Source: Bacteroidia bacterium (GTDB lineage: Bacteria; Bacteroidota; Bacteroidia; JAESSM01; NORP286). From it: a stretch of 18,979 nucleotides of DNA. Of the stretch, positions 2 to 18,931 are shown in pieces. The notes under the pieces were generated by a model. That model was not told the DNA's origin and did no database searches. It saw only the letters and a list, made by a program, of their open reading frames with translations. Where the stretch lies: contig JAESSM010000044.1 of NCBI GenBank assembly GCA_016764115.1, forward strand, positions 1 to 18,979, given 5' to 3'. Both the position numbers and the translations under genes were made by a program. The number at the start of each line of letters is the position of its first letter. Position 1 is the first letter of the stretch.

Positions 2-994
2 CAAAACATCGCAAATGTTATCAACTGCTCCACCAACGAAGTATGGTTCACATCCGGTGGTACAGAATCTAATAATTGGCTGTTAAAGGGTTTGGTTCAA
101 CCCGCTTTAAAAAATGGAAAAAAACATTTTGTTATTTCTTCTATAGAGCATAAATCAATACTGAGAACTGCCAAATATATAAGTGATTCTTATAACATAG
201 ATCTAACTCTTTTACCCGTTAATACTGATGGCATAGTTGAATTGAACGACTTAAAAAATGCCATAAGAGAAGATACTTATTTAGTATCTGTAATGCTTGC
301 CAATAATGAGACAGGCATTATACAACCTATCAAAGAAATTGCCCAAATTTGTAAAGAGAAAAACGTCATTTGTCATACAGATGCCGTATGTTCTTTAGGA
401 AAAATGCCCATAGATTTTAAGGCTTTGGGGGTAGATTCCATGTCATTCTCTGCACATAAACTATACTCCCCTAAGGGTGTAGGAGTGTTGATATTAAAAG
501 AAAATATTGAGATTGACCCTTTAATTCACGGGTGCGGACAGCAATGTGGTATGCGTAATGGTACTGAAAATGCAGCCGGAGCAGCTGCATTCGGAAAGGC
601 ATTGGAGTTATTACAACAAGGAGAATTTGCAAATCAAACATCTTCAGAAGAATTATCTGCAGTGTTAAAACTTGGCTTACAAGAATCGTTTAATGACCGT
701 GTTACATTTCATGGAAATGGAGATAGATTATCAAATACTATTTCAGCGACTTTTGAAGGAATGTCAGCTGATTTTCTTCAAACTGAACTGTCCAATCATG
801 GCATTTGTGTTTCTGCCGGAGCAGCAGCAACAACCGGTGATCCCTCGCATGTGCTAACAGCAATGAAAATTTCAAAAGAAGTTGCTCAGTCAACTTTAAG
901 AATTAGTTTTGGTTGGGGAACCACAAAAGAAGACATCAGTTATTTTGTAAATACCATTTCCAAAATTTATGAAACTGAAAAAGTATTATCATGA
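2..994 (+). CDS. NifS/IscS-like PLP enzyme without the catalytic cysteine, 5' end cut by window edge
   Basis: Fold-type I PLP enzyme (aminotransferase class V, cysteine desulfurase family). The frame is open from base 2, so the N-terminus lies outside the window; a TTG at 92 is internal. Seen: GGTESNN (PLP phosphate loop) near 56-76, ANNETG near 299-316, HTDAV at 374-388, and SAHK with the PLP-binding lysine at codon 458-460. RNGTEN and PSHVL follow. Odd: where desulfurases read SSGSAC, this protein reads SAGAAA, so the persulfide-forming cysteine is alanine (codon 827-829), and the loop to PSHVL is about two residues short. The position of the PLP-contacting Gln (IscS Q183) is Cys (389-391), and the IscS His104 position is Leu (296-298). 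It overlaps the cysteine dioxygenase gene by ATGA at 991-994. Classical desulfurase activity for Fe-S assembly is unlikely; cysteine sulfinate desulfinase, selenocysteine lyase or cystine lyase activity is inferred as more plausible. Confidence 0.88.
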   Translation, partial: QNIANVINCSTNEVWFTSGGTESNNWLLKGLVQPALKNGKKHFVISSIEHKSILRTAKYISDSYNIDLTLLPVNTDGIVELNDLKNAIREDTYLVSVMLANNETGIIQPIKEIAQICKEKNVICHTDAVCSLGKMPIDFKALGVDSMSFSAHKLYSPKGVGVLILKENIEIDPLIHGCGQQCGMRNGTENAAGAAAFGKALELLQQGEFANQTSSEELSAVLKLGLQESFNDRVTFHGNGDRLSNTISATFEGMSADFLQTELSNHGICVSAGAAATTGDPSHVLTAMKISKEVAQSTLRISFGWGTTKEDISYFVNTISKIYETEKVLS

Positions 995-1554
995 TTGACA
1001 ATATCCTAACCATTAAATCCGTAGAAACCCTGGTCAATTCACTTGATCCTGAAGTGAAGAATTTTGTGGAGTATGGCAATGTTATGAATGCCATTGATAT
1101 GGACGAAAACGATTTGAAGCCATATTGTCATTGGCGAAAGGAATTTTACACAAGAAACCTTATTGAAAGAACTAAAGCATATGAGTTAATTGTGCTTTGT
1201 TGGGATGTTGGACAATACAGCCCTATCCATAACCATGAGGGTCAAGATTGCTGGATGTATATTGCTAAAGGCCAAATGGAAGAGGTTCAATATAAAATTG
1301 AATCTGAAGAAAACGACAACTGCGTTTTAAAAGAAACTAACGAAACAATCTTTGCTAAAGGGCAAGTAGCATACATTCACGATGGTATCGGTTTACACAT
1401 CATTAAGAATTCAGGAAAAGAACCTGCAATTACAATTCATCTATACGCAAATCCAATAAATTTTTGCAACGTTTACGATCTGGAAAAAGGGAAAATAAAT
1501 AAACGAAAATTGACTTATTTCTCTGAAAAAGGGGAATTAACCAGCAATTCCTAA
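991..1554 (+). CDS. Cysteine dioxygenase
   Basis: Cupin-fold, non-haem iron enzyme that oxidises L-cysteine with O2 to cysteine sulfinate; cytoplasmic, no signal peptide. At 187 residues it is close to the roughly 200 of mammalian CDO. Seen: YTRNL, with Arg55 matching the carboxylate-binding Arg60 of rat CDO; the metal pair His80 and His82 in SPIHNH; the third ligand His136 in GLHIIKN; Tyr152 in IHLY at the position of rat Tyr157. Cys87 lies at the position of rat Cys93, so both residues of the Cys-Tyr thioether cofactor of animal CDOs are present, whereas many bacterial CDOs have Gly there (family knowledge). The arginine favours a true cysteine dioxygenase over the mercaptopropionate dioxygenase branch. 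The ATGA overlap with the PLP enzyme gene indicates translational coupling and a joint role in cysteine or sulfinate catabolism. Confidence 0.9.
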   Translation: MIDNILTIKSVETLVNSLDPEVKNFVEYGNVMNAIDMDENDLKPYCHWRKEFYTRNLIERTKAYELIVLCWDVGQYSPIHNHEGQDCWMYIAKGQMEEVQYKIESEENDNCVLKETNETIFAKGQVAYIHDGIGLHIIKNSGKEPAITIHLYANPINFCNVYDLEKGKINKRKLTYFSEKGELTSNS

Positions 1555-3507: not shown

Positions 3508-3607
3508 AAAAATGAGCTTTAGAGATAGGCACTGGTCAAAATAACACGGGTTATTAACTTACCTGAATTCATTTTTAATTATTTTGTAAATTGACTTGAA
3601 TTATCCT

Positions 3608-5638
3608 ATGAAATTCGATCTTACATCTGAATTTAAACCTACAGGAGATCAACCTGACGCTATTGAGCAATTGAGCTCGGGAATTGAAAGTGGTGAAAAG
3701 TATCAAACTCTTCTTGGTGTTACCGGTTCAGGAAAAACATTTACTATTGCTAATGTTGTTCAAGAGGTCCAACGACCAACATTAGTTTTAAGTCATAATA
3801 AAACATTAGCAGCTCAACTTTATGGTGAGTTCAAGAGCTTTTTCCCTAACAATGCTGTAGAGTACTTTGTTTCCTACTATGATTATTATCAACCTGAAGC
3901 TTATGTCCCGTCTATTGATCTTTATATTGAAAAAGATGCTTCGATCAATGAAGAAATTGAAAAACTACGATTAAGAACCACTTCCTATTTAATGTCAGGA
4001 AGGAGAGATGTCCTAGTGGTATCTTCAGTATCCTGCATTTATGGTATTGGCAATCCTGAAGATGTTAATCAAAATGTAATTCATATAAAAGCAGGGCAAA
4101 CTATAAGTCGAAATCAATTTCTATTTGATTTGGTAGACATCCTTTATTCCAGGACTGAAATCGAAATGAAAAGGGGAAACTTCAGGGTAAAAGGAGATAC
4201 TGTTGATATATATCTTGCTTACGCAGATTACGCTTACCGCATAACTTTTTGGGGTGATGATATTGAAACCATCGAAAGTTTTGATCCGGAAACAGGAAAA
4301 ACCATCAACCAATGGGATGAAGCCAACATTTATCCGGCAAATATTTTTGTTACTTCTAAAGACAAAATGAAAGATACCATCAGGCAAGTTCAAGATGATA
4401 TGGTAAAGCAAGTTGAATATTTTAACTCCATTGGTAAAGGATTAGAGGCAAAGAGATTGGAAGAACGAGTGACTTATGATTTAGAAATGATGAGAGAGCT
4501 GGGGTATTGTTCGGGTATAGAAAATTACTCACGATATTTTGACGGCAGACAATCCGGATCAAGGCCTTTCTGTTTATTAGATTATTTTCCTGATGACTTT
4601 CTTGTCGTAATAGATGAAAGTCATGTTACATTACCACAAGTAAGAGCTATGTTTGGTGGAGATAGATCAAGAAAAAGCAATCTAGTTGAACATGGTTTCA
4701 GACTCCCTGCAGCAATGGACAACCGGCCCCTGAAATTTGAAGAATTTGAAGCAGTTGCTAATCAGATAATTTATGTAAGTGCTACCCCTGCAGATTATGA
4801 GCTCGAAAAATCTGAAGGAATAATTGTAGAGCAAGTAATTCGCCCTACAGGTTTGCTTGACCCAATAGTTGATATCAGGCCATGCACTACTCAGGTTGAT
4901 GACCTTTTGGACGAAATAAATGAACGAGTCATGCAGAAAGAAAGAGTGCTCGTTACAACATTGACCAAAAGAATGGCGGAAGAATTATCTAAATACCTGG
5001 ACAGGATGGGTGTAAAATGCAGATATATTCATTCAGAAGTAGATACACTTGAGCGGGTTGAAATATTAAGGGAATTGAGATTAGGAGTATTTGACGTACT
5101 AGTTGGGATAAATCTTTTGAGAGAAGGATTAGACCTGCCGGAAGTTTCTCTCGTTGCGATACTTGATGCAGATAAGGAAGATTTTTTACGCTCTGAAAGA
5201 GCATTGATTCAAACCTCTGGGAGAGCCGCAAGAAATATTAATGGGAAAGTGATCATGTATGCTGATACTATTACAAATTCCATGCAAAGGGCAATTGATG
5301 AAACCAATCGTAGAAGGGAGAAACAAGTTGCTTATAACAATGAACATAATATCACTCCTAGAGCAATAATCAAATCCAAGGAATCTATTATGGAGCAAAC
5401 TTCAATAATTGATAACAAATCAGGATCAAAGAAAAAAGGCAAAGCTTATATTGAAAATACAGAAATAAGCATGGCTGCTGATCCCGTAGTACAATACATG
5501 AGTAAACCGGAGCTAGAGAAACTGATCAATGAAACAAAAAGGAAAATGGAAAAGGCAGCAAAAGACCTTGATTTTGTAGAAGCTGCTAAATTGAGAGATG
5601 AAATGTTTGCTTTGGAAAAGTTGTTTAAGTCAAAATAA
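3608..5638 (+). CDS. uvrB: Excinuclease ABC subunit B
   Basis: Damage-verifying helicase-like subunit of UvrABC nucleotide excision repair, acting with UvrA and UvrC on DNA. The 676 residues match the family (about 670). Seen: N-terminal FKPTGDQP; Walker A GVTGSGKT at 37-44; the beta-hairpin region YYDYYQPEAYVP that clamps DNA; DESH at 336-339 (Walker B); VSATP; helicase motifs HSEVDTLER, GINLLREGLDLPEVS and QTSGRAARN; and a C-terminal UVR motif (about 635-672) that contacts UvrC. I chose ATG 3608 because the protein then begins MKFDLTSEFKPTGDQP like relatives; the in-frame TTG at 3596 would add four residues. It is transcribed away from aroE after a 166-bp gap, so probably independently. No SOS box is recognisable. 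Confidence 0.97.
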   Translation: MKFDLTSEFKPTGDQPDAIEQLSSGIESGEKYQTLLGVTGSGKTFTIANVVQEVQRPTLVLSHNKTLAAQLYGEFKSFFPNNAVEYFVSYYDYYQPEAYVPSIDLYIEKDASINEEIEKLRLRTTSYLMSGRRDVLVVSSVSCIYGIGNPEDVNQNVIHIKAGQTISRNQFLFDLVDILYSRTEIEMKRGNFRVKGDTVDIYLAYADYAYRITFWGDDIETIESFDPETGKTINQWDEANIYPANIFVTSKDKMKDTIRQVQDDMVKQVEYFNSIGKGLEAKRLEERVTYDLEMMRELGYCSGIENYSRYFDGRQSGSRPFCLLDYFPDDFLVVIDESHVTLPQVRAMFGGDRSRKSNLVEHGFRLPAAMDNRPLKFEEFEAVANQIIYVSATPADYELEKSEGIIVEQVIRPTGLLDPIVDIRPCTTQVDDLLDEINERVMQKERVLVTTLTKRMAEELSKYLDRMGVKCRYIHSEVDTLERVEILRELRLGVFDVLVGINLLREGLDLPEVSLVAILDADKEDFLRSERALIQTSGRAARNINGKVIMYADTITNSMQRAIDETNRRREKQVAYNNEHNITPRAIIKSKESIMEQTSIIDNKSGSKKKGKAYIENTEISMAADPVVQYMSKPELEKLINETKRKMEKAAKDLDFVEAAKLRDEMFALEKLFKSK

Positions 5639-5860: not shown

Positions 5861-5891
5861 GAACAGCATTAGTTATTTATTTTTATTTGTG

Positions 5892-8800
5892 ATGCAAACC
5901 ATCAAGATTTTTATATTCTTCTATTTCATTTGCACTACCAGCTTGATAGTTGCTCAACAATTACCTTTTTGGAATTATGGTGTGGATGATGGCCTGCCAA
6001 GCTCTAAGATCTACGGAATCATTCAAGATTCTAAAGGATTTATATGGATAGCTACTACTAATGGTGTTTGTCGTTTTGATGGAATTAAATTTACAACATT
6101 TACTATGAACAATGGAATACTGGATAATGAAGTCATTAAGATGTATGAAGATAAAGAAGAAAGAATTTGGATGATCTCTCTTTCCGGTAAGTTATCCTAT
6201 TACTATCAAAATAAGTTTTTCAACTATGATTCACTTGACATATTAAAAAGAGTTAGGGTATGTGGAATCATGCAAGATAGGAATCATAATTTATGGTTAG
6301 GTACCTGGAAAGCTGGTATTATTAAGATCACCCAAGATAGTGTGATCCAATTTTCAAATGAAAAGTTAAATTCAAAAGGTGCTATCGCTCCATATGTGGA
6401 AGACTCAACGGGTGCTATTTTGTGTGCTTCTTTCCTGGAATTTATAGTGATCACAGATTCTACTATAAATCACCATAGTTTCCAAGCTAACGATGTTAGC
6501 TACAATAGAAGAATTCTTCATAATCAGGATGATAATATTTATTATACAATAGGAGGAAGCATAATTAAGTTCAATAGAGAAAGTCAGGATGAATTAATTT
6601 GCAATATTAATAAAAACCTAAAGACCGAAAGTGATATCAGTTGGTTGGTTGAATACGAAAAGAATAATTACTGGGTAAGCACTTTCAATAATGGAGCATT
6701 ACAGATAAAAAATGGGTTTGAAAACTGGAATCAAGCACAGTACTATTTAGAGGACCAAAATTTATCTATGATCATTGCAGACCATGAAGAAAATATATGG
6801 TTTTCGACATTAGGTAATGGCCTTTACTTTTTACCAGCGAATTCAAGATATTGTATCAATTACAATAAAGAAACAGGGTTAATTGATAATAATATCAATT
6901 GTGTTACAAAAGATAAAGCAGGTCGTATCTTATTGGGTACAAGTAATGGAAATTTAAATTTCATTAATAATAATGAGGTAAAGGAGATCTTATTAAATCC
7001 GAGGCAAACTAATAGAACTGTAACCTGTATCTTGTCCCATTCCAATGGATCTACCTGGGTAGGTACTACACTCGGCATTATGATCTTAAAGGACAAAACC
7101 GTTGTAAAAGACTTTTTTACTTTTGTCGGAATAAAAGATTTACATGAAGATAAAAATGGTAATGTATGGGTAAGTACTTCATTTAGAGTATTTCATTTAG
7201 AAAATTTTGAGATTATAAAATTGCATCAGACAGCCCGTAATCATTGTATTTTTATTGATCATAGCAATAAAACCTGGATTGGTGGGGAAAATGGATTAAT
7301 GTACATTCAAAATGACTCCATCTATGTATTTAATGGGCTAAATGATGTATTTAACTACCAGGTAACTGACATTAAAGAATCATCCGATAGTACCCTATGG
7401 ATTGCTACTCAAGGAAACGGAATTGTAGGATTAAAAAAGCAAAAAATAAACTTCCACATAAAAGCTAAGGATGGATTAGTAAGTGATTTTTGCAACTCGC
7501 TGTTTGTGAATTCCGAGAAAAATGTATTGGTCGGTTCAAACTCAGGAATAAGCGACATAAGGTTTCATAATGATCGGGATAGACAGTTTAGCATAGAAAA
7601 TATCAATATCAGGAATGGCCTTATCTCAAATGAAGTTAGAGGGATCTTCAAACAAAATGATACTACCTGGATCACCACCAGAATGGGGGTAACCATGCTC
7701 TTTGAACAGTATCAGAAACATAAATTAAGCACCCCCTCAATCAATTTAACCGGTTTTAAGGTCAATAATATAGAGCTAAAAAGAGGCTCAAACATAGTAC
7801 TTGATCATGACATGAATGATATTCAATTTGATTTTGTTGGCATCTCTTATAAGAGCTACGGACAAATCAAGTACAAATATAAATTGATTGGAAGTGACAG
7901 TTCCTGGAAGTATACAAGCGCAACAACACTACACTTTCCTTCCTTGATACCAGGTAATTACGAATTTTCAGTCATTGCTCAGGATATTGAAGGCAAATGG
8001 AGTAAAATGTCCACTAATTTAAAATTTGTAATACTTCCCCCTTTTTGGCAAACTTGGTATTTCCAGGGTTCACTATCACTTTTGATCTTACTCAGTGGGG
8101 TGGGCTTTTACCGATGGAGAATAGCTAGTTTAAAGAGAGATAAGAAATTACTTCAGCAGAAAGTTGAAGAGAGAACAAAAGAGTTGGCTCAAAAGAATAA
8201 AGATATTACGGACAGCATTACTTATGCCAAGCAAATTCAAAGTGCAATTTTACCTCCATTAGAAAATATCTCAAGTATCATTAAAGACTACTTTGTTTTA
8301 TACAAACCCCGAGATATTGTCAGCGGTGATTTTTATTGGTTTCATAATATTGATCAAAACAAGTACATCATTGCTGCATGCGACTGCACTGGTCATGGAG
8401 TTCCGGGGAGCCTCATGTCAATGGTTGGGAATGATCTATTGAACCAAATTGTTGTTGAGAAGAGAGTAAGCGAACCTGGAGATATACTAGAGAAACTGCA
8501 CACAGGTATCAGAAGAGTTTTACGCCAGGATTCTATTGATGTAAAAGCCAGAGATGGAATGGACATGGCTCTTTGTATTATTGATATAAATAAGATGGAA
8601 TTTCAGTATTCCGGAGCACACAACCCTTTATTTTATGTTACTAAACACGAATTAATTGATATTCCGGAAACCAAAACTTTTAGGATACACGAATTCGATA
8701 GTGAATATAAATTATTGGAAGTTAAAGGAAATAAATATGGTATTGGTGGGGAAGTAATGGGTAAAGAAAGAAAATATGAAAGCCATTCTTTCAATTTTAA

Positions 8801-9020
8801 TGCTGGTGATTCCATTTATTTATTTTCGGATGGTTACCAAGACCAATTTGGAGGACCAAGAGATAAAAAATTATCACCAAGAAAACTGCGCGAGGTTTTG
8901 ATTCAGAATCAAAATACATCAATGAAAAATCTCAAAAATACATTGGATGAGGAAATAGAAAAGTGGAAAGCTGATTCCGAACAAACGGATGATATATTAG
9001 TAATTGGGATAAAGTTATAA
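5892..9020 (+). CDS. Propeller sensor with cytoplasmic PP2C/SpoIIE-type phosphatase
   Basis: Transmembrane signalling protein of 1042 residues. Order: signal peptide (1-22, ending SLIVAQ); a long periplasmic region of Reg_prop beta-propeller repeats, visible as recurring short IWIAT/VWVST/TWIGG-type blades each preceded by D.xGxxW-like turns (about 30-610); a Y_Y_Y domain (about 620-715); one membrane helix (about 725-745); a coiled coil (QQKVEERTKELAQKNKDI); and a PP2C-like Ser/Thr phosphatase (about 795-1042). The phosphatase keeps the acidic metal-site motifs GDFYW (812), DCTGHGVPG, SDGYQDQ (Asp980) and QTDDILV (1033-1034), so it should be active. These sensors usually carry a histidine kinase; here the output is SpoIIE-like, expected to dephosphorylate an STAS anti-sigma antagonist, though no partner gene is in the window. 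ATG 5892 is preferred to the adjacent GTG 5889. It converges on the TPR gene with a 13-bp gap. Confidence 0.9.
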   Translation: MQTIKIFIFFYFICTTSLIVAQQLPFWNYGVDDGLPSSKIYGIIQDSKGFIWIATTNGVCRFDGIKFTTFTMNNGILDNEVIKMYEDKEERIWMISLSGKLSYYYQNKFFNYDSLDILKRVRVCGIMQDRNHNLWLGTWKAGIIKITQDSVIQFSNEKLNSKGAIAPYVEDSTGAILCASFLEFIVITDSTINHHSFQANDVSYNRRILHNQDDNIYYTIGGSIIKFNRESQDELICNINKNLKTESDISWLVEYEKNNYWVSTFNNGALQIKNGFENWNQAQYYLEDQNLSMIIADHEENIWFSTLGNGLYFLPANSRYCINYNKETGLIDNNINCVTKDKAGRILLGTSNGNLNFINNNEVKEILLNPRQTNRTVTCILSHSNGSTWVGTTLGIMILKDKTVVKDFFTFVGIKDLHEDKNGNVWVSTSFRVFHLENFEIIKLHQTARNHCIFIDHSNKTWIGGENGLMYIQNDSIYVFNGLNDVFNYQVTDIKESSDSTLWIATQGNGIVGLKKQKINFHIKAKDGLVSDFCNSLFVNSEKNVLVGSNSGISDIRFHNDRDRQFSIENINIRNGLISNEVRGIFKQNDTTWITTRMGVTMLFEQYQKHKLSTPSINLTGFKVNNIELKRGSNIVLDHDMNDIQFDFVGISYKSYGQIKYKYKLIGSDSSWKYTSATTLHFPSLIPGNYEFSVIAQDIEGKWSKMSTNLKFVILPPFWQTWYFQGSLSLLILLSGVGFYRWRIASLKRDKKLLQQKVEERTKELAQKNKDITDSITYAKQIQSAILPPLENISSIIKDYFVLYKPRDIVSGDFYWFHNIDQNKYIIAACDCTGHGVPGSLMSMVGNDLLNQIVVEKRVSEPGDILEKLHTGIRRVLRQDSIDVKARDGMDMALCIIDINKMEFQYSGAHNPLFYVTKHELIDIPETKTFRIHEFDSEYKLLEVKGNKYGIGGEVMGKERKYESHSFNFNAGDSIYLFSDGYQDQFGGPRDKKLSPRKLREVLIQNQNTSMKNLKNTLDEEIEKWKADSEQTDDILVIGIKL

Positions 9021-13430: not shown

Positions 13431-16400
13431 TCAAGATTGCAATTCTTCTTTCTTTTTTTCCATCCCAGCCATTTTGGTCAACTTTTGAATTGCAACTGCA
13501 ATTGTATCGATCAAATTGATCCTAAGAATCAAACTTTTTGCCGTTTCTTTCATTTCGCAACCACTTGGATGTGTTTGCACATATTGAAGTATGCTTGAAA
13601 AGATATCAGAATTATAATAGTCTTCATTTTTTTTAACGAAGTAACAGTTCATCACTTGATTTTTCATAACGATTCTTTCAAATCCAAGTTTGGTAGCTAA
13701 CCACCTCAACCTTACTGTATCAAACAACTCCTCCACCTCAATTGGCGATTTCCCGAATCTATCTACCATTCTAGATTTAATTTTTTTCAAGCCCTCCTCA
13801 TCCTTTTGAGCATTGATCTCATTATACAAATTCAACCTTTCAGAAATATTCTCAACGTAGGAATCTGGGATTAAAATGGACAAATCAGTATCGATTTGGC
13901 AGTCATTGACAAACTCTTTTGGTTTTTGATTTTTAAATAGATCCTTAAACTCATCCTCTTTCAATTCCTTTATTGCTTCATCCAAAATTTTATGATACAT
14001 GTTAAAGCCCATTTCGGATATATAACCACTCTGCTCAGCTCCTAATAAATTTCCGGCTCCACGGATATCCATATCGCGTAAAGCTACATTGAAACCGCTT
14101 CCTAAATCAGTAAATTCCTCAATTGCGCTGAGTCGTTTTCTAGCTTCCTGGGTTATAGTTGATAATGGTGGTGATATCAGATAACAAAATGCCTTTCTAT
14201 TTGATCTTCCTACTCTACCTCTCAATTGATACAAATCACTTAAACCAAAATTCTGTGCATTGTTAATGATCATAGTGTTGGCATTCGGAATATCCAATCC
14301 CGATTCAACAATAGTGGTACAGAGCAGTACACCATACTCCCCTCCAATAAAATCCAGCATCACTTTCTCTAACCGCTTGTTATCCATCTGCGCATGACCA
14401 ATTCCAATATGTACACCCGGGCAAATTTTTCTTAACAGTACCGCTACATCTTCAATGTCTTTGACTCTATTATGTATAAAAAATACTTGCCCACCCCTTG
14501 ATATTTCATAGTTAATAGCCTCACGTATAACTTCTTCATTAAAAATATGCAGTTCTGTATCTATCGGTTGTCTATTGGGCGGAGCTGTATTTATTATTGA
14601 CAAGTCTCTGGCCCCCATCATTGAAAAATGTAATGTTCTTGGAATTGGTGTGGCAGTTAAGGTTAAAGTATCAACGTTTTCCCGAAACTGTCTTAGCTTC
14701 TCTTTGATTGATACACCAAACTTTTGTTCTTCATCAATAATTAATAATCCAATATCCTTAAATTTAACATCCTTACTGACCAACCTATGTGTGCCGATCA
14801 AAATATCAATTTTGCCCTCTTCTAATTCCTTTATTGTTTTCTTTTGCTCCGCATTGCTCTTGAATCGGTTCAAATAATCCACAGTGCACGGAAAATCTTT
14901 CAACCTTTCAGTAAAAGTTTGATAATGCTGAAGCGCTAAAATAGTTGTAGGAACTAAAATTGCAACCTGTTTACTATCGCTGACAGCTTTGAATGCAGCA
15001 CGTATGGCAACCTCTGTTTTTCCGAAACCAACATCACCACAAATCAATCTATCCATCGGGTTTTCCTTTTCCATATCAGTTTTTACATCCTCTGTGGACT
15101 TGAGCTGATCAGGAGTATCCTCATAAATAAATGAGGCTTCAAGCTCTGATTGAAGATAGGTATCGGGTGAGAAAGCAAAACCTTTCTGTGCTTTACGTTT
15201 TGCATAAAGTTTTATCAATTCATTGGCGATATCCTTAACTTTGGACTTGGTTTTTTTCTTCAGATTTTCCCATGATACAGATCCCAATTTATTCAATTTG
15301 GGAGCCATAGCATCTTTGCCGGTATATTTAGATATTCGATGCAAAGAATGAATATTCACATATAGCAGATCCTGATCTTTATATACGATCTTAACAGCTT
15401 CCTGCAATTTCCCATCTACTTCAATTCTTTCCAGTCCTGCAAATTTTCCAATTCCGTGATCGATGTGCGTAACATAATCTCCTGGCTTGAGCTCCTGAAG
15501 CTCCTTTAATGAAATAATTCTTTGCTTGGAATATGCCTTCCGTAATTTGAATTTATGGAATCTGTCAAAAATTTGATGATCTGTATAACATGCTATTCTT
15601 AAGCTCTTATCTACAAACCCCTTATGGATACTTAATTCAATTGCTTCATATTCTACTTCTTCCTCAATATCATTGAAAATCTCAATTAACCGATTTCTTT
15701 GCTTTTCCGAATCGGCACAGATGATGTTTTTGATTCCTTGTTCAGTGTTTTGGATAAGATTGGATACCAACAATTTAAAATCCTTATGGAAATCCGGTTG
15801 TGGTGATGATCGAAACTCAATGCTATTCGTTGCATCGAAGTAAAAGTGCGGTCCAAGTTCAACTATTGAATGTTGCTCTAATCCGCCTAGCAATGCATCA
15901 GCACTCAAAAAATAGCGGTCCGAATTTTTAAAAATTTGGTTTACCTCATCGTAATTAGCCCACGATTCGTCAATATCATGATCATTTAATTCAGCGCAAC
16001 TCTTTGTAATAACTTGCTTCGAAAACTCAACATCCTTTATCCAAACGGTAGTACCTTCAGGTAATAAATTTAAAAATGAGTCGTATTGCGCATTACTCTC
16101 ATCAAACTGAATTTTGGGAATGATCACTGCTTCCGATACTATCTCAACAGAGGATTGGGTTTCAGGATCAAAGGTTCTTATCGATTCTATTTGATTCCCA
16201 AAAAACTCAAACCGAAAAGGAAGTTCATTAGAAAACGAATAAATATCAACTATTCCCCCTCGCACTGAAAACTGACCAGCTTCATACACATAATCTGATC
16301 TCTGAAAATGATTATCGATCAATAATTCTGCTAAAAACTCCAATTCAACTTCTTCATTACTTCTCAGCTTAATAGTCTTTGCTTTCAGCGATTCTTGATT

Positions 16401-16805
16401 GACGATTCTTTCTCCCAAGGCATGAGGAAATGTAACGATCAAATTTGTTGAATTCCCATTTTCTGAAATTTTGGACAAGGTTTCAATCCTTTCCAGTACC
16501 AGTGCATTGCTATAAGAATCAGGGAAATAGGGCCTCTTGAATGCACTAGGGAAAAAGAAAACATTACTCTTTTTAGCCAGATTTTGGAGATTATTAAAAA
16601 AGTAGGCAGCTTCTTCTTTTTCTGACAGCACAAACAAATGAGTTCGATTCACAGAATCGGCAACAGCAATACTTAAACAAGCATCCATTGACCCAACCAA
16701 GCCCTTTAGCTGAATTTTTTGCTTGTCCTTATCTCTAAGCAGATTGCTTATTGTTTCTACCTCAGTAGTTTCGCGGTAGTATTTTAGTATATGTTCAGAT
16801 TCCAT
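13431..16805 (-). CDS. mfd: Transcription-repair coupling factor
   Basis: Mfd removes RNA polymerase stalled at lesions and recruits UvrA for excision repair. The 1124 residues match the family (about 1150). Seen in order: a UvrB-like N-terminal module without helicase motifs (from about 1 to 330; FPDSYSNALVLERIE and the RGGIVDIYSF strand resemble UvrB); the RNA polymerase-interacting domain (GDYVTHIDHGIGKFAGLERIEVDG, about 445-470, with YVNIHSLHRISKY); and a RecG-like translocase with Walker A GDVGFGKTE (590-598), Walker B DEEQ (691-694), TATPIPRTL and SGLDIPNANT. QLRGRVGRS and the TRG motif MDIRGAGNLLG follow, then the C-terminal TRCF domain. ATG 16805 overlaps the stop of the upstream DUF218 gene by 11 bp, so expression is probably coupled to it. 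Downstream lies a hairpin in the 77-bp repeat. Confidence 0.97.
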   Translation of the reverse strand: MESEHILKYYRETTEVETISNLLRDKDKQKIQLKGLVGSMDACLSIAVADSVNRTHLFVLSEKEEAAYFFNNLQNLAKKSNVFFFPSAFKRPYFPDSYSNALVLERIETLSKISENGNSTNLIVTFPHALGERIVNQESLKAKTIKLRSNEEVELEFLAELLIDNHFQRSDYVYEAGQFSVRGGIVDIYSFSNELPFRFEFFGNQIESIRTFDPETQSSVEIVSEAVIIPKIQFDESNAQYDSFLNLLPEGTTVWIKDVEFSKQVITKSCAELNDHDIDESWANYDEVNQIFKNSDRYFLSADALLGGLEQHSIVELGPHFYFDATNSIEFRSSPQPDFHKDFKLLVSNLIQNTEQGIKNIICADSEKQRNRLIEIFNDIEEEVEYEAIELSIHKGFVDKSLRIACYTDHQIFDRFHKFKLRKAYSKQRIISLKELQELKPGDYVTHIDHGIGKFAGLERIEVDGKLQEAVKIVYKDQDLLYVNIHSLHRISKYTGKDAMAPKLNKLGSVSWENLKKKTKSKVKDIANELIKLYAKRKAQKGFAFSPDTYLQSELEASFIYEDTPDQLKSTEDVKTDMEKENPMDRLICGDVGFGKTEVAIRAAFKAVSDSKQVAILVPTTILALQHYQTFTERLKDFPCTVDYLNRFKSNAEQKKTIKELEEGKIDILIGTHRLVSKDVKFKDIGLLIIDEEQKFGVSIKEKLRQFRENVDTLTLTATPIPRTLHFSMMGARDLSIINTAPPNRQPIDTELHIFNEEVIREAINYEISRGGQVFFIHNRVKDIEDVAVLLRKICPGVHIGIGHAQMDNKRLEKVMLDFIGGEYGVLLCTTIVESGLDIPNANTMIINNAQNFGLSDLYQLRGRVGRSNRKAFCYLISPPLSTITQEARKRLSAIEEFTDLGSGFNVALRDMDIRGAGNLLGAEQSGYISEMGFNMYHKILDEAIKELKEDEFKDLFKNQKPKEFVNDCQIDTDLSILIPDSYVENISERLNLYNEINAQKDEEGLKKIKSRMVDRFGKSPIEVEELFDTVRLRWLATKLGFERIVMKNQVMNCYFVKKNEDYYNSDIFSSILQYVQTHPSGCEMKETAKSLILRINLIDTIAVAIQKLTKMAGMEKKKEELQS

Positions 16806-17587: not shown

Positions 17588-18931
17588 TTATTCCTTCAAA
17601 ATAAAAATGAACTGACCACCTTCATCTCCTGTATTTTTAATAGACTGGAACTTAGGAGATTGGTTTGAGTTATTAATTACAGGGATCTTTATGTCCGCAT
17701 AAAGCTGACTGGCATCAAAAAACTTACTTGTATTTTCTTTTAGTGATTTCAAAAGGTAATAAGCAAAAACTGAATGCCCGTCCTGGCCTCCATCCATAAC
17801 CGGCTCAATACCACCTGAGGTTATTGCTTGTCGCGATGCTAAATTATGAACTAAATTAAAGTAACGCTCCGATTCTTCGAAAGGGACAGAAACTGTGTGC
17901 CCGCGAAACACATCGCCACTAAAACAAGCATCAGAAACAAGTAATGTATGTTTAGACTTTATACCTCCTAAAAATGTTTGCAGATCATTGTTAGAAATAA
18001 ATTCAGAGGTAGACTTGGAGCTTGCATCAACAGGAACCCAATAACCTTTGTTTAGTTCATTTTTGAATTCACCATGCCCGGAGTAATAAATAAAAACATT
18101 GTCATCCTTTTCAACATTGGCAACTAACCATTCCAGCTTTTTGATGATGTTCGCTCTCGTAGCATCCTCATTCAGTAATGTAATAGAGTGGTCTAACTTA
18201 TATTTTTCGGTCAAAAGATCATTAATAGCATTAGCATCATTTACAGCATTATTCAAAGATTCCCATTCTCCTTTGTAAGTATCAATACCAATTACTAATG
18301 AATAGTACTTACCTATTTTCATTTCCTTTGCCTTGGTAACATTTAGTCCTTTTAATGGATCTCCACCACGCAATGTTTGATCCTTATAATGATCCACTCC
18401 AATGTTAACAGCCATATCAGCACCTTCTACTTTTATTTTATATTTAGAAGCAACTCGAACATTGATAACTGTATTTTCCGGGATCTCAGCATTTTTTCCG
18501 GGTATCAAAAGAAACAGAAGGTTCGGACCAGGCATTACAAAACATCCTATGCAAAATAGCGTCTCAACAATATCACGATCATCACCCTTTATTTTATATT
18601 CATCTGTTAAATTGATCAATTGTCCATCAACAGCTGTTGTAGACAGGAAATGCAATTCAACCTTCCCGCCTTTACCTCTGACTTTTGCTTTCCTTCGTTC
18701 CACTTCAACTTCAACTGCTGTACCCATTTCGATGAGAACATTTCCATCTAGATCCAAAACATTTTGATCGACAATAACCTGGGCTACAACATTTTTCTTA
18801 CTGTTTAAGTCATTTTGAGTTTTAACCCTTATAGCAGATCCGGAATTAATGATCCCTACTTGTGCATGAGCACAAATCCCAATAATTAGCAATAAACAAA
18901 TGATATTTACTCTGGCAAGAAGCATGAACAT
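17588..18931 (-). CDS. Exported caspase-fold (peptidase C14) protein
   Basis: 447 residues. A signal peptide (1-23, ending ICAHAQ) points to export. Residues 28-165 form a beta-rich domain of the GSAIRVKT...GTAVEVEV...RGKGGKVELHF...AVDGQLINL type, ending with a glycine/proline-rich hydrophobic segment (about 126-145) and NAEIPENTVINVRV. I recognise the pattern but no name. Residues 205-445 are a caspase p20-like domain: YYSLVIGIDTY; NDANAINDLL; VFIYYSGHGE with catalytic His286; LLVSDACFSGD with catalytic Cys336; then TSGGIEPVMDGG and GHSVFAYYLLKSL. The dyad is intact, and the Asp before the Cys resembles metacaspases and paracaspases, which prefer basic P1 residues (family knowledge). ATG 18931 is used; ATG 18925 is equally possible. 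A consensus -7 box lies 20 bp upstream. Role unknown: protein processing or a stress/death protease are options. Confidence 0.9.
   Translation of the reverse strand: MFMLLARVNIICLLLIIGICAHAQVGIINSGSAIRVKTQNDLNSKKNVVAQVIVDQNVLDLDGNVLIEMGTAVEVEVERRKAKVRGKGGKVELHFLSTTAVDGQLINLTDEYKIKGDDRDIVETLFCIGCFVMPGPNLLFLLIPGKNAEIPENTVINVRVASKYKIKVEGADMAVNIGVDHYKDQTLRGGDPLKGLNVTKAKEMKIGKYYSLVIGIDTYKGEWESLNNAVNDANAINDLLTEKYKLDHSITLLNEDATRANIIKKLEWLVANVEKDDNVFIYYSGHGEFKNELNKGYWVPVDASSKSTSEFISNNDLQTFLGGIKSKHTLLVSDACFSGDVFRGHTVSVPFEESERYFNLVHNLASRQAITSGGIEPVMDGGQDGHSVFAYYLLKSLKENTSKFFDASQLYADIKIPVINNSNQSPKFQSIKNTGDEGGQFIFILKE

What the first reader, a model, noticed from the sequence alone, without database searches (positions are those of the whole stretch)
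2..1554. Cysteine dioxygenase coupled to a NifS-like enzyme that has lost its catalytic cysteine: a possible cysteine sulfinate desulfination pathway
Seen: the PLP lysine and fold motifs are intact, but SSGSAC is SAGAAA (Cys to Ala, codon 827-829), the Cys loop is about two residues shorter, and two more active-site positions differ (IscS Q183 to Cys, H104 to Leu). The gene overlaps, by ATGA, a cysteine dioxygenase with a complete active site. Established: E. coli CsdB/SufS with its cysteine changed to alanine loses cysteine desulfuration but can still release Se from selenocysteine and sulfite from cysteine sulfinate. Inference: the dioxygenase makes cysteine sulfinate and the Cys-less enzyme turns it into alanine plus sulfite, a dedicated two-gene cysteine catabolic route rather than Fe-S cluster supply.
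Basis: partly seen in the sequence, partly recalled or inferred. Interest (0 to 1): 0.7.

Follow-up and report, generated by a model that had tools for sequence, protein, structure and literature searches.

The report
Cysteine-less NifS paired with cysteine dioxygenase
A bacterial gene pair probably breaks cysteine down in two steps: one enzyme oxidises its sulfur and a NifS-type enzyme that has lost its usual catalytic cysteine then releases it as sulfite; the same coupled pair recurs in a distant bacterial phylum, so it looks like a dedicated, apparently undescribed pathway.

Summary
Window 2-994 is a group I NifS-like PLP enzyme, cut by the contig edge; the catalytic Cys is Ala (827-829), the loop is two residues shorter and IscS Q183 is Cys. 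IscS H104 is not lost (His, 149-151). It overlaps, by ATGA, a cysteine dioxygenase (CDO, 991-1554) with a complete active site.

It is no lone decayed gene. It belongs to one well-supported clade with a four-site switch: Cys328 to Ala/Ser/Gly/Thr, Gln183 to a small residue, Gly233 to an invariant Cys (HGCGQQ), Glu236 to Gln. The PLP set is kept. In Planctomycetota, 18 of 21 loci have a CDO directly downstream, 17 with an in-frame start at the same 4-nt overlap; of 118 other NifS-like loci, one has a weak CDO-like hit nearby. Window and planctomycete genes lie on opposite sides of the clade's deepest split. Two Bacteroidota relatives pair CDO with a cysteine-sulfinate-decarboxylase-like enzyme instead.

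Best reading (0.72): a dedicated cysteine sulfinate desulfinase (alanine plus sulfite), translationally coupled to CDO. The reaction is known; a natural Cys-less clade coupled to CDO was not found in ten paper searches. No activity was tested. The role of the new invariant Cys is open.

The parts
2..994 (+). Cys-less NifS-like PLP enzyme (proposed cysteine sulfinate desulfinase), 330 aa, 5' end cut by the contig edge (about 53 aa missing)
   Evidence: Aminotran_5 225.8 bits; NifS model 314.9 of 530.75 bits; full-length relative P0001 98%; member of the Cys-less clade
149..151 (+).
   Evidence: sequence; His in 120 of 120 members
389..391 (+). Cys at the position of IscS Q183 (lost Gln)
   Evidence: A67/C42/S6/T3/G2 in 120 members, Gln in 130 of 131 others
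458..460 (+). Schiff-base Lys (IscS K206)
   Evidence: Lys in 120 of 120 members
533..535 (+). new invariant Cys in HGCGQQ (IscS G233 position)
   Evidence: this Cys defines the set of 120; the 131 others have Gly 96, Ala 34, Lys 1
542..544 (+). Gln at the position of IscS E236
   Evidence: Gln in 117 of 120 members, Glu in 129 of 131 others
827..829 (+). Ala at the position of the catalytic Cys (IscS C328)
   Evidence: A105/S8/G5/T2 in 120 members; all 131 others have a Cys in this loop
899..901 (+). Arg equivalent to IscS R356 (substrate carboxylate)
   Evidence: Arg in 120 of 120 members
991..994 (+). ATGA stop/start overlap joining the two genes
   Evidence: sequence; in-frame candidate start at the same 4-nt overlap in 17 of 18 planctomycete pairs
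991..1554 (+). cysteine dioxygenase, CDO_I family, 187 aa
   Evidence: PF05995 81.2 bits; the 20 distinct solved sequences matched are all cysteine dioxygenase type 1
1147..1446 (+). CDO active-site set: Y58 (1147-1149), R60 (1153-1155), H86 (1228-1230), H88 (1234-1236), C93 (1249-1251), H140 (1396-1398), H155 (1438-1440), Y157 (1444-1446); rat CDO numbering recalled

Best explanation
A two-gene operon for oxidative cysteine breakdown. CDO oxidises cysteine to cysteine sulfinate (CSA). The Cys-less NifS-like enzyme binds CSA as a PLP aldimine, deprotonates C-alpha (Lys206), passes through a ketimine/quinonoid and expels SO2 (sulfite) from C-beta, releasing alanine. CSA carries its own leaving group, so the Cys nucleophile that accepts sulfur from cysteine is not needed. 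Replacing Glu236 by Gln and Gln183 by a small residue would reduce negative charge and make room for the sulfinate. The 4-nt overlap couples translation so that CSA does not accumulate. Shown: the genes, their overlap, the clade, the residue switch, the retained PLP set, the CDO active site. Inferred: substrate, product, translational coupling, direction of flux and the role of each changed residue.
For: Absence of Cys328, Gln183 and (117 of 120) Glu236 goes with Cys at 233 in 120 non-redundant proteins, while H104, D180, H205, K206 and R356 stay in 120 of 120 and N155 in 119: a changed, not a dead, enzyme. One clade, SH-aLRT 100, with the four trait columns left out of the tree. CDO directly downstream in 18 of 21 planctomycete loci, with an in-frame start at a 4-nt overlap in 17 of 18, and likewise in the window, on the other side of the clade's deepest split. 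All 18 linked CDOs and the window's keep the complete CDO set. In Bacteroidota kin G004 and G062 a CDO with the full residue set stands beside a PF00282 decarboxylase; that of L014 is closest to GADL1 and CSAD and that of L016 is its homologue (588 bits): CDO beside an enzyme that would consume CSA. The genome has three other class V proteins (L001-L003) scoring above the window gene, each with Gln183 and the catalytic Cys, so sulfur supply need not rest on this one. A Gln183 change (Q183E) cost IscS its desulfurase activity (abstract of PMC9978102), which fits a clade that no longer does that job. PLP-dependent CSA desulfination by an E. coli NifS-like protein is on record (passages of PMC3276061 and PMC6100217).
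Against: No substrate, product or kinetics were tested. The invariant new Cys is not needed by the simple desulfination mechanism. Three of 21 loci lack the adjacent CDO: L140 (one CDO elsewhere in that genome), L146 (no CDO found in its genome G847) and L186 (genome not searched); the last two are of a GCGHQ subgroup. CDO also occurs without this partner: of 19 genomes of the order, 12 have a CDO-family hit; the 11 besides G820 have no class V gene in the flanks held and are not among the 20 genomes with a clade member, and 4 of those 11 are good hits of 70-99 bits. Cys93 and Arg60 of the CDO do not single out linked ones: Arg60 is in 44 of 44 rows, Cys93 in 6 of 11 unlinked ones. No sulfite-handling gene was looked for. 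In Bacteroidota the clade was found only in the window's genome (1 of 395 and 1 of 395).
Confidence: 0.72

Rival explanations
1. CSA aminotransferase: the enzyme swaps the amino group of CSA with a 2-oxo acid, giving 3-sulfinylpyruvate that falls apart to pyruvate and sulfite.
For: Same substrate logic and same CDO pairing. Gln183 is replaced by a small residue, as in several class V aminotransferases (recalled, not tested).
Against: The clade resembles NifS-type enzymes, not aminotransferases: best curated models are NifS, DndA and IscS; the best solved folds are NFS1, IscS and NifS. Models of 2-aminoethylphosphonate aminotransferases score about 50 bits or less.
Confidence: 0.11
2. Cysteine desulfurase with a relocated catalytic Cys: Cys at the HGCGQQ position takes over from Cys328 and the protein still makes a persulfide from cysteine.
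For: The new Cys goes with the absence of Cys328 in 120 of 120 members and is absent in 131 of 131 others. The loop leads to the Thr that contacts the PLP phosphate (IscS T243, recalled; Thr268 of ToCDS in a passage of PMC5426080; that the two are equivalent is inferred).
Against: A desulfurase and a CDO would compete for cysteine, so coupling them would make little sense. Gln183, described as stringently conserved in desulfurases and selenocysteine lyases (PMC3343029 passage), is lost. The position is not on the mobile loop that hands sulfur to acceptors.
Confidence: 0.08
3. Cyst(e)ine C-S lyase of the C-DES type: no catalytic Cys, acts on cystine or another cysteine S-conjugate, giving pyruvate, ammonia and a persulfide.
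For: C-DES of Synechocystis also lacks the catalytic Cys (passage of PMC8300815).
Against: It would not explain the CDO pairing. C-DES is described as a monomer; the oligomeric state here is unknown and no alignment to C-DES was made.
Confidence: 0.05
4. Alanine-forming lyase on another substrate, such as selenocysteine or another sulfinate made by a CDO-family dioxygenase from a different thiol.
For: Cys-free NifS-type enzymes are recalled to still release Se from selenocysteine.
Against: Selenocysteine lyase SclA model 100.5 of 525 bits. The CDO keeps Arg60, recalled as the carboxylate ligand of true CDOs, but so do all 44 CDO-family rows compared, so this is weak.
Confidence: 0.04

Closest known systems
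NifS/IscS group I cysteine desulfurases (TIGR03402, TIGR02006; NifS-like 1ecx, E. coli IscS 1p3w, human NFS1)
   Same: Fold (TM about 0.9), PLP lysine, His, Asp, carboxylate Asn and Arg
   Different: No catalytic Cys, loop two residues shorter, Gln183 lost, Glu236 to Gln, invariant Cys at 233; P0001 352.4 of 530.75 bits for TIGR03402
E. coli CsdA, 'cysteine sulfinate desulfinase' (4lw2)
   Same: Proposed reaction; PLP-dependent desulfination of CSA
   Different: CsdA is class II (PMC8300815 passage), has a catalytic Cys (recalled) and is not known to me to be coupled to CDO; P0001 100.6 bits or less to CsdA models
Synechocystis C-DES
   Same: PLP enzyme of the desulfurase group without the catalytic Cys (PMC8300815 passage)
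   Different: Cyst(e)ine lyase, monomer; no CDO link in the passage seen
L-aspartate beta-decarboxylase
   Same: PLP enzyme named as catalysing desulfination (PMC6100217 passage)
   Different: Other family; side activity (recalled)
CDO plus CSAD (hypotaurine route), here in Bacteroidota kin G004 and G062
   Same: CDO beside a PLP enzyme that would use CSA
   Different: Decarboxylase family (PF00282) and divergent orientation; predicted product hypotaurine

Membership tests
group I cysteine desulfurase (NifS/IscS) | PLP Schiff-base Lys with stacking His, Asp and His | tested here: met
   K206, H104, D180, H205 in 120 of 120 members; window residues
group I cysteine desulfurase (NifS/IscS) | substrate carboxylate Asn155 and Arg356 | tested here: met
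   Asn 119 of 120, Arg 120 of 120
group I cysteine desulfurase (NifS/IscS) | catalytic Cys (IscS C328) on the mobile loop | tested here: not met
   Ala in the window; A/S/G/T in 120 of 120 members; Cys in the loop in 131 of 131 others
group I cysteine desulfurase (NifS/IscS) | Gln183 (IscS) conserved | tested here: not met
   0 of 120 members; 130 of 131 others
group I cysteine desulfurase (NifS/IscS) | curated NCBIfam cut-off for NifS, IscS or DndA | tested here: not met
   P0001 352.4 of 530.75 (NifS), 280.8 of 643.2 (IscS), 292 of 480 (DndA)
cysteine sulfinate desulfinase (activity class) | CSA to alanine plus sulfite | not testable with these tools
   needs purified enzyme
cysteine sulfinate desulfinase (activity class) | source of CSA in the same operon (supporting, not defining) | tested here: met
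   CDO in the window with ATGA overlap; 18 of 21 planctomycete loci
cysteine dioxygenase type I | three-His iron site, Arg60, Tyr58, His155, Tyr157 | tested here: met
cysteine dioxygenase type I | Cys93 for the Cys-Tyr crosslink | tested here: met
   Cys at 1249-1251; in 18 of 18 linked CDOs, but also in 6 of 11 unlinked ones
selenocysteine lyase | catalytic Cys and curated model | tested here: not met
   no Cys at the position; SclA 100.5 of 525 bits
selenocysteine lyase | Sec specificity residue (human SCL D146) | tested here: inconclusive
   the residue after His103 is Lys, Arg, Trp or Ala in 120 members, but that this column is the D146 position is only my guess, and the other rows are mostly Pro or His there
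C-DES cystine lyase | monomeric Cys-less lyase | not tested
   no C-DES sequence was aligned

The most novel reading that the evidence does not exclude
The invariant HGCGQQ Cys is catalytic: a NifS-type enzyme in which the reactive Cys has moved from the mobile loop to the loop that leads to the PLP phosphate, where it acts on the sulfinate, as proton donor to C-beta (as Cys27 is computed to do in the unrelated desulfinase DszB) or as acceptor of the sulfinyl group in a thiosulfonate intermediate. This would be a new catalytic design in the desulfurase superfamily, specialised for sulfite release in a coupled CDO pathway.
Probability: 0.25. Interest if true: 0.8.

Novelty: new variant of a known kind. 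Interest (0 to 1): 0.62.

Why it matters
What bacteria do with the cysteine sulfinate made by CDO is not well settled, and CSA desulfination by NifS homologues has mostly been seen as a side activity (both recalled). A natural clade without the desulfurase Cys, with another invariant Cys and next to CDO in most loci examined would be a dedicated enzyme for that step. It would show how a sulfur-supplying scaffold was turned into a catabolic one. It also warns that genes named 'cysteine desulfurase' in planctomycete MAGs may have nothing to do with Fe-S cluster or thiocofactor supply. The pair is small, so the claim is directly testable.

Tried and rejected
Decay to a pseudogene: rejected, since the PLP set is kept and the same switch recurs in 120 non-redundant proteins. 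H104 to Leu: rejected from the sequence. The nearby Cys (806-808) as a substitute nucleophile: rejected, Cys in 7 of 127 rows. Defence function (PADLOC SspA 385 bits and DndA 376 bits): taken as the general NifS resemblance, since the curated NCBIfam DndA cut-off is not reached (292 of 480) and the 11 window ORFs scanned with Pfam gave no evident ssp or dnd partner (the large ORFs 3596-5638 and 13431-16805 were not scanned). Cys93 of CDO as a marker of linked CDOs: first looked so among planctomycete CDOs (Gly in L108, L151, L167, L172, L173), then found in 6 of 11 unlinked CDOs, so dropped. Conserved third gene: a Cupin_7 protein lies upstream in L163, with a 66% identical homologue in L162, and beside CDO in L188; the upstream ORFs scanned in L160, L161 and L165 had no Pfam hit and the other loci were not scanned; not pursued. 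The genome-contig scan used general PLP motifs and gave mostly ordinary NifS genes; only L029 and L051 belonged to the clade. Nine ordinary rows that seemed Cys-less were misaligned by one residue and do have the Cys. Phyla of L096 and L071: 0 of 259 and 0 of 269 at the strict cut-off; the tool warns that an empty answer without a positive genome shows nothing. Atom distances could not be read: the structure tool gave no coordinates. In one search a motif regex failed on ten of eleven loci and was replaced by the alignment.
Full report
Setting. The window is contig G000:C103:1-18979 of a draft genome of 2.09 Mb in 244 contigs, 69% complete. Its sampled relatives share only its class or phylum; a near-identical CDO, P0121, is named 'Bacteroidia bacterium', so the phylum is taken as Bacteroidota.

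The two genes. ORF 2-994 lacks its 5' end at the contig edge. Pfam gives Aminotran_5 (225.8 bits); the best NCBIfam model is NifS, far under its cut-off (314.9 of 530.75; 352.4 for the full-length P0001). ORF 991-1554 is CDO_I (81.2 bits). The start ATG of the second gene overlaps the stop of the first as ATGA (991-994). Downstream, after 136 nt, come an undecaprenyl-phosphate-translocase-like gene and a protein with a shikimate dehydrogenase domain, with no evident link.

The residue switch. One search scored 8000 candidates and listed the best 120; counted from the alignment and the loops printed, 108 of the 120 lack the catalytic Cys and have GCG(Q/H) where the other 12 have GG or GA. With proteins from the fetched loci, 262 distinct rows were aligned; after clustering at 97% identity 120 rows carry Cys at the IscS G233 position and 131 do not. 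The 120 have A105/S8/G5/T2 at C328, A67/C42/S6/T3/G2 at Q183 and Gln in 117 at E236. The 131 all have a Cys in the loop, with Gln in 130 and Glu in 129. H104, D180, H205, K206, R240 and R356 are kept in 120 of 120 and N155 in 119. Six of the 120 have a Cys elsewhere in the loop at unconserved places. The rows were found by similarity to the window gene and its kin, so the count describes the clade and is not an unbiased sample of all desulfurases. The DndA structure paper calls the Asn/Gln/Arg trio equivalent to IscS N155/Q183/R356 stringently conserved among the desulfurases and selenocysteine lyases its authors examined (passage of PMC3343029). The clade breaks that rule at the Gln alone. 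In IscS, changes at Asp180 and Gln183 cost activity (abstract of PMC9978102); this fits loss of the desulfurase role but by itself would also fit a weak enzyme.

One clade. In a tree of 92 rows (46 of the 127 Cys-less rows, 46 of the 135 others; chosen subset; the four trait columns left out) the Cys-less rows form one side of one branch (SH-aLRT 100, length 0.6). They split into a 10-row group with the window's relative P0001 (98) and a 36-row group holding all planctomycete loci in the tree (99). Two rows, L141 and L170, are the same gene fetched twice.

Distribution. With the profile A1: own genome only among 395 Bacteroidota genomes (tool cut-off 1e-90, clade membership read from the bit-score gap 509 against 407) and among 395 of the own class; 8 of 392 Planctomycetota genomes (the tool's tally at 1e-125 is 19, the clade read from the gap 488 against 439 and from the GCG motif); 20 of 154 genomes in the order of G820; 0 of 259 and 0 of 269 in the phyla of L096 and L071. 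The six listed clade members that carry an organism name are Planctomycetes or Planctomycetota. The clade thus looks mainly planctomycete, with a second branch to which the window belongs and whose other hosts are unknown.

Pairing with CDO. Of 21 distinct planctomycete loci (L139-L146, L174-L186; 20 from one order plus L140) 18 have a CDO directly downstream on the same strand within the 1.5 kb flank. Exceptions: L140, whose genome has a CDO on another contig, and L146, whose genome G847 shows none; L186, whose genome was not searched for CDO. L146 and L186 are of a GCGHQ subgroup. The loci are related, so 18 is not a count of independent events. Control: of 120 other NifS-like loci examined, two (L029, L051) are further fetches of clade members and do have CDO; of the remaining 118, one (L151) has a weak CDO-like hit (52.8 bits) nearby. 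Control flanks reach up to 6 kb, some cut short by contig ends. In 17 of the 18 pairs the CDO frame has a candidate start (ATG, GTG or TTG) overlapping the stop by 4 nt; in several other candidate starts lie nearby, so the used start is not proven. L181 has a TAG stop and its only near candidate 20 nt downstream. The window shows the 4-nt overlap. Since the two sides of the clade's deepest split both have the pairing, it is either ancestral or was passed on as a unit. In a CDO tree the planctomycete linked CDOs and the window-like CDOs lie near each other, but supports are modest.

The CDO. It matches cysteine dioxygenase type 1 among solved structures (97 bits) and keeps Y58, R60, H86, H88, C93, H140, H155 and Y157, as do all 18 linked CDOs. 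Six of 11 unlinked CDOs from the same order also have Cys93. Conversely, of 19 genomes sampled in that order 12 have a CDO-family hit; besides G820 none of the 11 has a class V gene in the flanks held.

A parallel. Of the 12 CDO-family loci found in Bacteroidota kin (L014-L025), L014 and L016 keep the full residue set; L022 and L023 lack only Cys93, and the other eight have further changes. L014 and L016, and no other of the 12, stand beside a PF00282 decarboxylase, in divergent orientation. That of L014 is closest to GADL1 (298 bits), then two CSADs (292, 290), ahead of GAD1 (251). CDO beside an enzyme that would use CSA thus occurs with two unrelated partners.

Other desulfurases. L001, L002 and L003 of the same genome score above the window gene for Aminotran_5 and have Gln183 and the catalytic Cys.

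Structure. The AlphaFold2 model of P0001 on A1 has mean pLDDT 93, pTM 0.91, with lower confidence at residues 231-240 (mean 72) and 321-330 (75), which are the very regions of interest. Foldseek's best solved structures are NFS1, M. tuberculosis IscS, the NifS-like protein 1ecx and E. coli IscS, TM-score about 0.9. Distances to PLP could not be measured.

Mechanism. CSA desulfination by PLP enzymes is known (CSD and L-aspartate beta-decarboxylase, named in a passage of PMC6100217; CSD also in PMC3276061). It needs no nucleophilic Cys because sulfinate can leave as SO2 (inference). Loss of Cys328 would then remove unproductive cysteine desulfuration next to an enzyme that needs cysteine. Loss of the Glu charge and of Gln183 fits a more anionic, larger substrate. 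The invariant new Cys is the point that this reading does not explain. In DszB, unrelated, density functional calculations have Cys27 give its proton as SO2 leaves (abstract and passages of PMC6100217), which offers one idea.

Novelty. Paper searches: (ten, open-licence PubMed Central only; listings seen, capped at 10 to 20 rows each, and passages of PMC9978102, PMC8300815, PMC3343029, PMC5426080, PMC3266904, PMC3266270, PMC3276061, PMC12093155 and PMC6100217). None of the listings describes a NifS-type clade lacking the Cys beside CDO; 'cysteine sulfinate desulfinase' with 'cysteine dioxygenase' and 'cysteine desulfurase' with 'Planctomycet' and 'cysteine dioxygenase' gave no paper. Subscription papers, among them the bacterial CDO paper of Dominy and co-workers (not held), could not be read.

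Verdict. I hold it at 0.72 for CSA desulfinase. The chemistry is known, so I file it as a new variant of a known kind.

Noticed in passing
L014:1465-3508 and L016:1465-3445: In two Bacteroidota relatives a CDO with the full residue set stands divergently beside a PF00282 decarboxylase; that of L014 is close to GADL1 and CSAD: a likely bacterial hypotaurine route.
   Followed up: partly
L015, L017-L020, L025: Bacteroidota CDO homologues with an altered iron-site position (H88 to Tyr or Phe) and some with H155 or Y157 changes: possibly not cysteine dioxygenases.
   Followed up: no
L146 and L186: GCGHQ subgroup of the Cys-less clade without an adjacent CDO; no CDO found in the genome of L146. Its substrate may differ.
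   Followed up: no
L163:9825-10214, L162:10024-10428, L188:2391-3308: A Cupin_7 (ChrR-like) protein lies directly upstream of the Cys-less gene in L163, a 66% identical homologue has the same place in L162, and a Cupin_7 protein lies beside CDO in L188. Possible third component.
   Followed up: partly
17588-18931 (-): Caspase-domain protein (PF00656, 73 bits) with a long N-terminal part.
   Followed up: no
5889-9020 (+): Two-component-regulator propeller plus Y_Y_Y plus SpoIIE phosphatase domain, 1043 aa.
   Followed up: no
P0006 and P0124: A Cys-less enzyme and a CDO from the same source with identical longest-contig length (2109), probably one contig.
   Followed up: no
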